Source of the DNA: Owenia fusiformis
Lineage: Eukaryota > Annelida > Polychaeta > Sabellida > Oweniidae
Assembly (NCBI GenBank): GCA_903813345.2
Contig: CAIIXF020000001.1
Location: 60,529,885 to 60,593,884, forward strand
Reading direction: 5' to 3'
DNA length: 64,000 nt
Positions 11,701 through 23,700 of the stretch are shown here, one piece after another. Each line of letters opens with the position of its first letter. The stretch's first letter is position 1. The notes under the pieces were generated by a model. That model saw only the letters and a list, made by a program, of their open reading frames with translations. It had not been told where the DNA came from and made no database searches. Both the position numbers and the translations under genes were made by a program.

Positions 11701-14700
11701 TCTTGCACTAGACCCACATACATGTATTAACCCCCATGGTGATTTTTCACAAAGAGTTTTTGAAAGAATCATCAGGTTCATTCAAGGAGATTTTCAATTC
11801 AGTTGAATCAATGTAACAAAAAATTATTTTCAGTTTTTTTTGTTTTTAATTTCCAAATATAAAGATTTTTGTTTTACTCTTCAAATACATATCATATTTA
11901 ACCCAGACCCCAAATATATTAATAGAGGGCCCCACTAGTGCAAGACACACATCTCCCGTTGAGCAATACATAGCTGCATTTTTGGTAGTATAGGGGCCTA
12001 GTAAGACATAACAATGATGACGTCATGAATCACACTTACAGCAAACAAGTTTGATCGTCGACGATTTTTTCTACTTTGAGTAGGAGTACTTGTCGGGGTG
12101 GGAAGGTCTTTATTAGTCTCTGTCTTATCCTAGATATAGAAGAGACATTCACAATATTTTATCCTATATTTTAGACAATTGGTCCTACAGTTTTGGGGTA
12201 ATTGTTCCCTTCTCTTCCTTGTTACCACATAACACAAAGTGATCAGTGATTGGATAACATCATTGTAAAATAGCCAATTAGATCCAGCCTTACATCTGGG
12301 GTCAGTTTTTGGAGCTACCATAACTGGATGTTTAGAAAAGCTACAGTTAAATCAGAAACGGACCCCTGAGTAAGGCAGACATCAGCCAATCAGAGGGCCT
12401 TATACAAAATAGTCTCAAACCCAAACAAAATAGTCTCAAACTTGAAAATGTCAATCTCTGATGCCAGAGTGCTTCATAAGCAATTCTAGATGGAGAAAAC
12501 ATATATAATAGATAGATACAGGTATGCTCATATATTTTGCAGTAAATTGTCAATATCATACTCTATTGTGAGCTCCTGAGATAAAACACTGACAAATCTA
12601 GTTATATTTGAATAAAATCTAAAATATTAAATTTCCAAACAGTTTAAAGACATCAACATTTTCTTCAAATTAATCTGCTTTCTTATAATAAAATTATGAT
12701 TTCTTATATACAAATATAGAAAACTCCACAATAATTAAAAATATAATATCAAAAAAGACACGCTAAAAAGAACTGCCTAAAAACTATAAAAAGATCTAAA
12801 AACGTCTATGTCAAAAATGTGCATATAAAATCCAGAATAGAATTTTATTGAAGTTAATTCATATCATAAAAGAGATGAAGAAGTGTTTCTCTATGAAAAC
12901 TACAAAAAATAAGTAAGTCTTCTAATTGATATTAAGATATTATCAAGAATATTCATACAAGATAACTGAATTTAAATTATATATACGTACATCAAATTCA
13001 AATAATTTTATAACTTCATAACAACTAAATGAGAATGTAAATTAACACCAAGAATTAATTTAGGGGACCGTATCATGCATTGCACTCTACCTCACCACCC
13101 TATTTAGGAATTAGGACTAACATTTTTTCAATTATTGAGAAGCTCCCTTGATATATTTAATAAGGTGACAACATACACATTTGTATTAGAAAACATGAAT
13201 GTGATATTAGTTAATTAATATAAACACAAAAATGTGTGTGGCGCAATCTTATGATGCGATGACACCAATGCCAAATATGGTTAGAATGAGAAAGCCATCG
13301 GGACTTTTAATAATAGTTGAGAGTTAAACTTCCGATGCAAGAGAATGAGCTTAAGGCAAATAGTTATAAAATCTTCGGGCCACGATATCTTCATTGGTCA
13401 ACAGCTGACCATGAGAAATTAAAGAGAAAGAAACATGAGGAATGACTAAACATGGGAGAACAAAACGATGACAATCACAATGACCTGATACCTGGGAGAA
13501 TGATCAAAACATCACTAGGGTGGGAACTGGTCTTATTGGTCAACATAAACATGTTAGGCTGATCAGGTGAGGTTTGAATATGTGTCGATCAGGACCACGG
13601 GGACACTTAATTTTCATAGTGAGGCCATTCATAACAAATCTACCAACCACATCCATACAACCATTAGTACAAACATGGCATTCTAAAACAGCAGGGGAGG
13701 GTTGGGCCACCACTCAGCGATCAACTAGTACTTGCTCATTTAGAAGCTGAAATAAGCCTCCATCCTAGTTGCCTACATAATACATCATGCATGGTCCTAC
13801 AGGCTCAAATACCCTCGACTCAACATCACAACCAAATTATTGCAATAACTGTACTGTACAAATATCAAACTTTTATTGAACTGTGCTAGGTTATAACATG
13901 AAGTGAATATTCATAACACGCCAACGTCTAGTTTGTTAGTTCAACATTTTTGACTTCATCAGCAATTTTTTACATTATTTGAAGTTGGTAAATCAAATAA
14001 CAAACATCATTAGTTTGAAACTTTTTCATTGATTTAACTATTCATTAACATTTTGATTCATTATCATTGTGTCTGATTGTTATGATAAACAGTGGACATG
14101 TATAAATTTGTTGATTCACGTGACATTCAGATTATTTTTGGTTGATTGCTTAGTTATGGTTGATTGTTTGGTTTTGGTTGATTGATTAGTCAAGCCTCAG
14201 GTATTAAATGTGCCTTGATTAAGGTAATGAGTGCCCTCTTTAATAACTTACTAAAACCAGACTGGACCTAACGCGGGTCATACGCCCAAGAAGAGGGGTA
14301 AGGGGGGTATTGCTGGGAATTTGCAATTCCTTCATGAAACTATCCATTCGGTCCTAAATAAGCCAACAGAAAGAAAACATAAAATAAAACTCTAATAGGA
14401 TTGCTTAGCAACAGAATATAAACAGATAATGGATGGATAATACTGGTATCTCATTGAAGCCATTGAGTGTCAATTTTTAAACAAAATACTCATTACAGAA
14501 TTTTTCTGTTAGTAACAGAATGACAGAATGATTCTTACCAATTGAAATTTGTTTTCATCTTTTTTATTTGGTCAACAATGAGATATTGTCCATTGTTACC
14601 TAAGGTTTCCTTAAACTAGAAGCAACATTGTTTATTTAACATTTAAGTGGGTTCTTTAACAGATGTGCATATAATTTAGAATGACAATTGTCATTGTTTG

Positions 14701-20700: not shown

Positions 20701-23700
20701 CATTAATTCAGAAATAATGCATAGTGACAAAGTGACAAATAGTATGTGTGACAAATATGGTGATATAAGTAATATTATGTAATATGACATTTAGGTTGTA
20801 TATGCCATGTTATTAATTGGTGCTATGGCATATAGGTCATACACACCTTTACTATTAATTGGTGAAATGGCATATAGGTCATACACGCCTTTACTATTAA
20901 TTGGTGAAATGGCATATAGGTCATACACGCCTTTATTATTAATTGGTGAAATGACATACAGGTCATACATGCCTTTATTATCAATTGGTGATATGGCATA
21001 AAGGTCATATATGCCATCCTATGTGTGAAATGGCATGTTCTTGCTAATGAAAGAATGTAAGCTAGCTGCACTATGCATTATAACATATCTTCTATGATAT
21101 AAATACAAACTTGGCAATACTTCATGTAGAAAAGATATGACCAATGACATGTCATATCTCAAACGTGCCATTGTATTTATAATCCAGAAATTATTTTCTA
21201 GATTCATGCAATTTTTGGTTGAAGGTCGGCATTCAGTTCTCCACTTACACTAAAAGAGTTAGACTTCTGCACATTATATGTCTTTTTGTTTTTTCTACTG
21301 GCCCTGGGTGTTAATAAAGGGGATGGGGGTTCCCTATAAGTCACCATGACCTCCTAAAACAAAGTTAAATTAGTAACAAACAGAGTTATTAAATATAAAG
21401 TAGTCAGTTTTAAACAGACAAGCAGTCCTTATAGATTGAAGAATCACAGAGCTCTCCAGAGAAGGAAGTAGTTTAGTTCCATACCACCTCTTATTTTGGA
21501 GAGTTCAAATCAACCATGAGCTATGATAGACCTTTTATTTGTACAGCATATTCTTATTCAAAGATGACGTTTTCTAGATTTTCAGAAATCAAAATTGGAG
21601 GAGATACCAAGAGACAATGGTTATTCATTTTCAATGCTCATAACAATTTATAATCCCACACGATCGTTAGTTTGAACTTCTAATATCAGCCATACGAAGT
21701 AAGTTTATTTTTTATTAATTAACTTGTACATGCATCACTATTGATGCCCATGCATTTCTGGGACAGATGTTAATGCAGTTACGGGTGATGATTCAAATGA
21801 GGAAATCCCCGATGTCATATGACATAAATGACATCGTGAATTTGTGATGATTTCGAGTGCAGGTATTGATAAACCAAACCGGGCTGTTCGCACAACATAA
21901 ATCAAATAATTTAAAGAAATTACAAAAGAAAAAAATCTCATAGAAACACAAAGAACTTAATTTTAAAAAAGAACTAAATACATTAAGATACAACAATAAT
22001 TTCCTTCGTCTGTGAGAATTTGACAATTCGACATACCTGAGGGGATTCTGGTTTATCAGTCATTTGTAATTGTTGTTCTAACTGTTGTTGTAGCGATTGC
22101 TGAAACTGTTGCTGATGTTGCATCTGCTGTTGATTATGCAGCGACTGCAGCTGTTGTTGCAGCTGTTGCTGTTGTGCCATTTCTTGTTGCGCTTGACGCT
22201 GACTAAGATAAGCAGCTTTTTCCTGCTCACGCCTCTCTCGTTCCCGCTCCTTTTCAGCCTCTTTTTCACGTTGCTTTTTATCCTTTTTACGCTCCCTGCT
22301 GTCCCTTTCCCGTGGAGTGGTGGGTGGGTTATCTTTATACTGACCCTGATTCTGGTTCTAAATGGAAGTGGCACAAAGCATTTACAATATAATGTACACA
22401 TAGTTTAAAGAGACTCTTTACCATAGGATGGCACAATCAAGACCCCTTTAGACATTTTTGCGTAATGAGTTTCACCACATATTCATTTATCTACTTACCA
22501 TCGAAGAAGTCCCAAATCCCTCGCTTTCAGTGTTAATTCTGCGATTGTGCTGACCGATTTAATCATTTTCGCAGAAATTAATTCAACTTGAAGTTTGAAT
22601 ATATCGGTAAAATCCCCCTGGTATCTGATTGGTCATTGAATTTGTTTATCATGAACCTTATTGGCTGCCTGGTTCAAGATGCGTCTGTGCACTTGTGTGC
22701 TTATTGATTATCTGGACGAAAAACCTATGGTATGTCTTTAACATATCTAGGAAGTATCTGTTGTGAAACGCAAATTTCCTATTACTTATGAATTTTTCCT
22801 TTCCTCTTTCCCTTCACAATACTCATAAAAAAGGAATAGAGTCTTGTTTCATTTTCAATTACATGTACATGTATAACAATTAAAAGTCAATACCTGATTA
22901 GAATGTGAGTGAGGCAATGTGCCTGACCCAGAGGTCGACTGACTGCTTGTGCTATGAGTATCAAATGGTTTTTCCCGCGGTGGGGGTGGGGCATAAAGCG
23001 CTCTCTGTGGTGCGGCATGACTAGGATAGTTTGGGGTACTGGGACGTGAGTTTGTAGGCGTAGGTGTTGCGTAACGAGTTTGAACAATCTTTTGGCACGC
23101 TGGAAATATAAAAAACATTTAATGAGAAAATACAGAATTACACATATCATATATAAGAATCACACAGTACAAGTAACTCAAGTAAAAATTTGTATTAAAA
23201 TGCAACCCAAAACTAGCCCACCAATCTATCTCGACAGTACAAACACCGAAAAATGTATCAAGTTTGAGTCGATTTGCTGTTTGTTAATCCAAATAGAACA
23301 TTTATGAATGATGTCAGTACACAAGCCTTTGTATGATCATTCTACCAAGCCTTTCTTATTACATTACTTAATAGTTCATAATACTTACCATGGCTCTCAT
23401 TATAATTCATACATGGGACCTGAATTTCTAAATCCACCATATCTTTAGTACAACTCTTCACAGAATATTTCCTCTGCATTTCAATTTCTTTTCATTCATT
23501 GTGTAGAATTCCCAATCATCTGAATTACTTTTATTGCTACTCTTTATCAATGTGACATGCTCATTATGAGACAAAAATCAATTATAACAAGCAATTAAAG
23601 ATCTCTTAATTATCACAATTACATTTCATTTAATGATTAACCTTGGTCACCGAGAATATAATGCACTTATTTTATATTAACAGAAATATCAAGAACAATT

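What the first reader, a model, noticed from the sequence alone, without database searches (positions are those of the whole stretch)
12040..21353. Array of duplicated phase-0 cassette exons in the AGAP linker before the PH domain
Seen directly: five small segments (C1 21.3, C2 18.3, C3 17.2, C5 14.3, C6 12.0 kb) are open, phase 0 at both ends, end at GTAAGT-type donors, follow usable acceptors and encode a common pattern. The alignable cores are [75 protein letters not shown] and [14 protein letters not shown]. Family knowledge: vertebrate AGAPs have one such segment (TPTP..RK..KRRSNLFT). Inference: exon duplication has made a set of interchangeable or cumulatively included modules that vary a proline-directed phosphosite plus basic patch next to the phosphoinositide-binding PH domain. 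I know of no description of such an array in AGAP genes.
Basis: partly seen in the sequence, partly recalled or inferred. Interest (0 to 1): 0.87.

Follow-up and report, generated by a model that had tools for sequence, protein, structure and literature searches.

The report
Duplicated linker exons in AGAP gene
A gene for a membrane-traffic switch protein (AGAP) in an invertebrate carries a row of five related small exons, each encoding variants of the same short motif; if cells mix and match them, one gene could make many differently tuned proteins, but no RNA evidence was available to show that they do.

Summary
On the minus strand of an AGAP gene, five exon-like segments lie between linker exon 22037-22357 and the exon before the PH domain (9825-9923). 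Five of five are open, phase 0 at both ends, and end at GTAAGT. They hold six copies of a motif, consensus [KR][DE]LxxPxxTPxxxRKxK. In leave-one-out tests five of six copies score 20.7-35.2 bits, with 0 of 1,207,523 simulated windows reaching them; C5 is marginal. With generic splice rules the phase-0 candidates inside the array are four cassettes and one degenerate segment, C4, which is inconclusive; C3 misses that rule. Best reading: old tandem duplication of the AGAP linker exon, C6 being the canonical copy, with the copies kept as coding exons. That they are optional and cumulative, and tune phosphorylation and charge beside the PH domain, is inference: no transcript or animal relative could be examined. 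It is a new member of a known kind (tandem exon duplication), unusual in affecting what is probably a disordered linear motif.

The parts
21249..21353 (-). Cassette C1, 35 codons, [35 protein letters not shown], phase 0/0
   Evidence: (leave-one-out 33.3 bits); GTAAGT donor; TGCATG at +38
18315..18407 (-). Cassette C2, 31 codons, [31 protein letters not shown], phase 0/0
   Evidence: (20.7 bits); TGCATG at -29 and -9 of its acceptor
17199..17345 (-). Cassette C3, 49 codons, two motif copies in one exon (C3a, C3b), phase 0/0
   Evidence: (31.1 and 35.2 bits); misses the generic acceptor rule; TGCATG at -200 and -9
15994..16077 (-). Candidate degenerate cassette C4, 28 codons, [28 protein letters not shown], phase 0/0, donor GTGAGT; motif largely lost
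   Evidence: 7.9 bits, expected 0.18 per 10 kb by chance; 3.1 bits; inconclusive
14252..14353 (-). Cassette C5, 34 codons, [34 protein letters not shown], the most divergent of the five, phase 0/0
   Evidence: 11.6 bits; 15.7 bits in the TP block; 14.3 bits
12040..12129 (-). Cassette C6, 30 codons, [30 protein letters not shown], taken as the canonical (ancestral) linker exon
   Evidence: (26.5 bits); resemblance to the vertebrate segment is recalled
22037..22357 (-). Upstream linker exon lnkB (Lys/Arg/Glu-rich, then Gln-rich), phase 0/0
22894..23099 (-). Upstream linker exon lnkA (Pro/Ser/Thr-rich), ends in phase 0
9825..9923 (-). Exon ph1, Lys-rich, leading into the PH domain, phase 0/0
5260..9435 (-). 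PH-domain exons ph2, ph3, inserts ins2 and ins3, ph4
2593..4972 (-). ArfGAP and ankyrin exons gap1-gap3, ank1, ank2 with the stop codon
24252..33254 (-). GTPase-like-domain exons g1 (33196-33254), g2 (29712-29799), g3 (26764-26849), g4 (26135-26276), g5 (24252-24386)
   Evidence: g3-g5; edges of g1, g2

Best explanation
The AGAP gene of this animal has had the small exon that encodes its linker motif duplicated in tandem several times, long ago. The copies C1, C2, C3 (itself a double copy), C5 and C6, possibly with a decayed C4, are kept as real coding exons. Because every copy and both neighbours meet in phase 0, any subset can be spliced in without breaking the frame. Shown here: the open segments, their boundaries, their mutual resemblance and their place in the gene. 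Inferred: C6 is the usual copy and the others are optional cassettes included in varying numbers. Each included cassette adds one to six proline-directed Ser/Thr sites, a basic patch and, in most, a serine behind basic residues, so that splicing sets how strongly the region next to the PH domain is charged and how it answers to kinases.
For: The joined model of 21 exons from g3 on (C1, C2, C3, C5, C6 included, C4, g1 and g2 left out) reads open for 974 codons to one terminal stop and matches Ras, PH, ArfGap and ankyrin families. Leave-one-out motif tests., thresholds set by the weakest cassette: 11 phase-0/0 candidates on the minus strand (4 other AGAP exons, 5 cassettes, 2 of 66 and 63 nt) and 2 short ones on the plus strand., generic rules: the five candidates inside the array are four cassettes and C4. 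All five donors are GTAAGT without G at -1, against 5 of 17 and 3 of 17 for the gene's other donors (hypergeometric 0.0096 and 0.0021), a shared boundary type that copies would inherit. Exon-end residues line up by eye (RSNLFA, RSHIFT, RSSLVL, KSNSFS, PSYIN; peptides). GC and codon usage lie in the range of the gene's other exons. Site counts.
Against: No transcript, read or relative was available, so inclusion of any cassette is unproved. C5 is only marginally above the null and C4 is inconclusive. C3 misses the generic acceptor rule. Cassette donor scores (3.4-5.7) are at the low end of the gene's others (1.5-13.0; 3 of 15 are below 3.4). GC of C1 and C6 is reached by 5.9% and 4.0% of intron windows and the codon score of C5 by 5.7% of open intronic segments. 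Introns around the copies share no repeats of 22 nt or more placed at the cassettes, so the duplication is inferred from the exons alone. The pS/pN contrast is what selection would give, but also what picking look-alike peptides would give. The functional step rests on motif reading only, and disorder of the linker was not tested.
Confidence: 0.62

Rival explanations
1. All copies are included together in every transcript: the array simply lengthens the AGAP linker into a constitutive repeat of the motif, with no splicing choice.
For: The five-cassette joined model reads open throughout; donors keep GTAAGT in 5 of 5; cassette acceptor scores of 5.0-13.1 are within or above the range of the other exons, -5.2 to 10.3.
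Against: Cassette donors lack G at -1 in 5 of 5 against 3 of 17 others and score 3.4-5.7, the low end. This is more usual of optional exons (general knowledge), not proof.
Confidence: 0.2
2. Mutually exclusive exons: exactly one copy is chosen per transcript, as in many tandem duplicated exons.
For: A common fate of tandem duplicated exons (PMC9013439, PMC9741552, PMC9882654; passages).
Against: All lengths are multiples of 3, so the frame does not enforce exclusion; no shared docking or selector repeats were seen in the array at a minimum length of 22 (five direct-repeat families and two inverted pairs, none at the cassettes). Shorter selectors would be missed.
Confidence: 0.1
3. Only C6 is a working exon; the others are old copies no longer spliced.
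For: No RNA evidence; C4 and, less so, C5 have drifted; searched as proteins in the whole genome, C3 and C6 do not find the other copies.
Against: Five open frames with intact boundaries and shared residues although synonymous differences are near saturation (pS 0.75-0.77); dead copies that old should have lost frames and splice sites.
Confidence: 0.06
4. The motif acts as something other than a lipid or charge switch: a kinase-gated nuclear import signal, an SH3 or other protein docking site, or a degron; the array then varies localisation or partners. (This concerns function only and is compatible with any splicing reading.)
For: Matches to short patterns recalled from memory: KKNK in C3, PxxPRK in C2, PxxxPR in C1, TPxxS-type in C1, C3, C6. 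PIKE-A/AGAP2 goes to the nucleus on AMPK phosphorylation of its PH domain with 14-3-3 binding (PMC6399291, abstract and passages).
Against: None of these patterns is in all five cassettes, whereas P, TP and R are invariant in the six copies. Such short patterns arise by chance.
Confidence: 0.3

Closest known systems
Tandem duplicated exons (PMC9741552, PMC9013439, PMC12343006; passages)
   Same: Homologous neighbouring exons in one gene, with divergence between the copies; large arrays are known, such as nine initial exons of Drosophila hydra (PMC9013439).
   Different: [quoted passage not shown] Here the copies lie in a linker expected (not tested) to be disordered, yet 83 of 170 residue cells of the core, C5 left out, are identical (the cores were chosen for likeness).
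KRAS exons 4A/4B (PMC9882654, a preprint; passages)
   Same: Homologous alternative exons that vary a polybasic, phosphorylatable membrane-targeting region.
   Different: Two mutually exclusive exons with lipid-modified ends, said to have arisen by insertion of an NRAS exon copy; here five internal in-frame exons.
Mammalian AGAP/PIKE and Drosophila Ceng1A isoforms (PMC4028201, PMC9818964, PMC12337383; passages)
   Same: The same gene family; isoforms by alternative starts and splicing.
   Different: The passages seen tell of alternative starts, a proline-rich N-terminus, truncation, or a skipped exon in the PH domain; none tells of a linker exon array.
Titin PEVK, CD44 variable and troponin T cassette exons (recalled, no call)
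   Same: Arrays of in-frame cassette exons included in varying numbers.
   Different: Other proteins and other motifs.

Membership tests
AGAP (centaurin gamma) proteins | GTPase-like, PH, ArfGAP and ankyrin domains in that order | tested here: met
   Ras 1.1e-11 (residues 29-127, profile 67-161, the model lacking g1 and g2), PH 6.6e-8 (507-567, half the profile; no single stretch passes 0.001 alone), ArfGap 1.9e-39 (728-838), Ank_2 4.9e-10 (854-944)
AGAP (centaurin gamma) proteins | Linker segment TPTP..RK..KRRSNLFT between GTPase-like and PH domains | tested here: inconclusive
   C6 has [16 protein letters not shown] at that place, but the vertebrate segment is recalled and no vertebrate record was compared
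Tandem exon duplication | Several homologous exons side by side in one gene | tested here: met
   C5 marginal, C4 inconclusive
Tandem exon duplication | Compatible symmetrical phase | tested here: met
   5 of 5 phase 0/0, both neighbours phase 0 at the junctions
Tandem exon duplication | Use of the copies in transcripts | not testable with these tools
   no RNA data
Mutually exclusive exons | One and only one copy per transcript | not testable with these tools
   no RNA data
Mutually exclusive exons | Competing docking/selector RNA structures | tested here: inconclusive
   one search found no repeat family of 22 nt or more placed at the cassettes; short or diverged selectors would be missed without relatives

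The most novel reading that the evidence does not exclude
A splice-coded rheostat: an animal with one AGAP gene varies, by cumulative inclusion of up to six motif copies in five or six exons, the number and kind of phosphorylatable basic modules next to the PH domain. Exon duplication would then do what gene duplication (AGAP1, AGAP2, AGAP3) does in vertebrates. RBFOX-type sites overlapping the acceptors of C2 and C3 and downstream of C1 would switch the mix, for example in neurons.
Probability: 0.25. Interest if true: 0.7.

Novelty: new member of a known kind. Interest (0 to 1): 0.5.

Why it matters
A human survey found that predicted disordered residues are poorly conserved between duplicated exons, and said that such events almost certainly exist but have diverged beyond detection (PMC9741552, passages). 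Here six copies of a short linker motif can still be aligned, so what the shared residues (P, TP, RK, terminal RS) are for becomes testable: which copies are used where, and whether copy number sets membrane binding or ArfGAP activity. It would also offer a case of exon duplication in a probably single-copy gene standing beside the gene duplications of vertebrates.

Tried and rejected
Whole-genome protein searches with C3 and C6 (the other three cassettes were not searched) find only themselves, plus for C3 one weak place at E 8. The copies are too diverged to find each other that way, so these searches show neither presence nor absence of cassettes elsewhere. The pS/pN contrast was rejected as independent proof because the cores were picked for peptide likeness. 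Repeats in the array are local tandem arrays and two inverted pairs not placed at the cassettes. RBFOX-type TGCATG (motif recalled): within 30 nt upstream in 2 of 5 cassettes (C2, C3) and 0 of 15 other exons. By hand, the chance that both such exons are cassettes is 10/190, about 0.05. It was noticed after the fact, the word occurs 38 times on this strand of the window, and it also lies within 300 nt of g3, lnkB, ph1, ph2, ins2 and C4, with none near C5 or C6; it stays a lead. A mitochondrial marker search for the species gave nothing. One annelid marker, PF16915, gave three places over its cut-off on contig C6, one with a stop inside, so an annelid is likely; markers of other phyla were not searched. 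First guesses at exon edges were wrong for C3, C5 and C4 and for most other exons by a base or two; they were corrected. Structure prediction, fold search and the RNA-family search were not run. The 46-nt repeat and the possible first exon were not followed.

I saw capped listings with the starts of abstracts. No listed paper was seen to describe a linker exon array in AGAP. In one search, 0 of the 20 listed papers hold AGAP1 or AGAP3; the other 156 of 176 were not listed. Of nine papers I saw search passages, none whole: PMC12337383, PMC9013439, PMC4028201, PMC6399291, PMC9818964, PMC9741552, PMC9882654 and PMC12343006 are the eight opened; all others were seen as listings only.
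Full report
What the gene is. The window lies more than 60 Mb along a contig of a 498-Mb animal genome. The minus strand carries an AGAP gene. I placed 18 exons outside the array: g1 to g5, lnkA, lnkB, ph1 to ph3, ins2, ins3, ph4, gap1 to gap3, ank1 and ank2. The first coding exons upstream of g1 were not determined. Joining the 16 exons from g3 on with the five cassettes gives 974 codons and one stop at the end. 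The translation matches Ras, PH, ArfGap and ankyrin families in the AGAP order; the PH match is partial. Exon g4 matches only itself in the genome at E of 0.001 or better, so there is probably one AGAP gene, within the limits of a search with one exon. PF16915, the annelid haemoglobin linker family, is found at three places over its cut-off, so the animal is probably an annelid; this is inference from one marker.

What is in the array. Between lnkB and ph1 lie C1 (21249-21353), C2 (18315-18407), C3 (17199-17345), C5 (14252-14353) and C6 (12040-12129). Five of five are open, phase 0 at both ends, begin with G after AG, and end at GTAAGT. The introns from lnkB to ph1, C4 left out, are 683, 2841, 969, 2845, 2122 and 2116 nt. 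The cassettes hold six copies of one pattern, because C3 holds two. In the alignment of the six copies P, TP and R are invariant. The exon ends also line up by eye (RSNLFA, RSHIFT, RSSLVL, KSNSFS, PSYIN).

Is it more than chance. A profile was built from five of the six cores each time and the left-out core was scored. C6, C2, C3a, C3b and C1 score 26.5, 20.7, 31.1, 35.2 and 33.3 bits, and 0 of 1,207,523 simulated windows reach any of them; among the 40,457 open real windows in six frames each ranks sixth, behind the five that made the profile. C5 scores 11.6 bits, reached by 5 of 1,207,523, and ranks ninth. In a second block starting just before TP, C5 scores 15.7 bits, reached by 3 of 1,295,586; in that block C3a and C1 are also near the null (3 and 4). 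In one search the five-core profile without C5 gives C5 14.3 bits in a KEL-anchored register, against a maximum of 14.2 for that profile. So five cores are beyond doubt and C5 is likely. With splice thresholds set by the weakest cassette, which is partly circular, the minus strand has 11 phase-0/0 candidates: four other AGAP exons, five cassettes and two of 66 and 63 nt. The plus strand has two, of 66 and 63 nt. With generic rules not taken from the cassettes the minus strand has 10 candidates and the plus strand 4. The five inside the array are C1, C2, C5, C6 and C4; C3 is missed by the pyrimidine rule.

C4. The segment 15994-16077 is open, phase 0/0, with a GTGAGT donor, and keeps EEL and SP but not TP or RK. 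Its best score on the six-core profile is 7.9 bits, expected 0.18 times per 10 kb by chance. In one search it scores 3.1 bits, above every candidate that is not a cassette (next -0.8). Its codon usage is reached by 2.1% of open intronic segments. It falls just under the acceptor threshold (4.8 against 5.0). I leave it as an inconclusive, perhaps decaying, copy.

Coding signs. GC is 0.41, 0.46, 0.47, 0.49 and 0.41 in C1, C2, C3, C5 and C6, against a mean of 0.32 in 731 intron windows; 5.9, 0.3, 0.3, 0 and 4.0% of those windows reach them. The fraction of 2362 open intronic segments with equal or better codon score is 0.025, 0.003, 0, 0.057 and 0.0008; for the 16 other exons tested it runs from 0 to 0.18. 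Between cores pS is 0.77 and pN 0.44, or 0.75 and 0.39 without C5. This fits old copies under constraint, but it is not independent of how the cores were chosen.

Boundaries. All five donors lack G at -1, against 3 of 17 other donors; all five are GTAAGT, against 5 of 17. This fits copies of one exon. It also fits regulated exons, but the three other non-G donors are GTAAGT too, so compensation alone could explain the pairing of the two features. Cassette donors score 3.4-5.7 on a matrix made from the gene's other exons, which themselves score 1.5-13.0.

How it may work. Shown: in-frame, skippable copies. Inferred: optional, cumulative inclusion. Each cassette brings one to six proline-directed sites (2, 1, 6, 2 and 2 in C1, C2, C3, C5, C6), a net charge of +2 to +7 and, in most, a serine behind basic residues. 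Placed before a PH domain, such modules could strengthen membrane binding and be weakened by phosphorylation, as membrane targeting of the KRAS4B tail is weakened by phosphorylation of a serine in its polybasic region (PMC9882654, passage). The PH insert exon ins3 carries a similar string, [14 protein letters not shown], so the motif may be used twice in the protein. TGCATG, recalled as the RBFOX site, lies at -9 of both C2 and C3 acceptors, also at -29 of C2 and -200 of C3, and at +38 of C1; it occurs near several other exons too and is a lead only.

Compared with what is known. Tandem exon duplication is common; the Exonize abstract gives full-exon duplication in at least 4% of vertebrate genes (PMC12343006). 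For mammalian and fly AGAP genes the passages seen tell of alternative starts, N-terminal and truncated isoforms, and a skipped exon in the PH domain; none tells of a linker array. I therefore class it as a new member of a known kind, notable because disordered parts of duplicated exons are usually poorly conserved (PMC9741552). Whether this linker is disordered was not tested.

Noticed in passing
7079-7726: A 46-nt tandem repeat of 14.1 copies, 98% matches, in the intron between PH-insert exons ins2 and ins3.
   Followed up: no
25284-25354: A hairpin with exactly complementary 32-nt arms (25284-25315 and 25323-25354) in the intron between g4 and g5; looks like a small foldback element.
   Followed up: partly
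5613-5729, minus strand: Exon ins3 inside the PH domain encodes [14 protein letters not shown], much like the cassette motif; the motif may occur twice in AGAP proteins.
   Followed up: partly
22037-22357, minus strand: Linker exon lnkB encodes a Lys/Arg/Glu-rich stretch followed by a long Gln-rich stretch.
   Followed up: no
38561-38806, minus strand: Open segment with [36 protein letters not shown]..., a possible alternative first coding exon upstream of g1.
   Followed up: no
20810-21009: A 42-nt tandem repeat of 4.8 copies about 240 nt downstream of C1 in its 3' intron.
   Followed up: no
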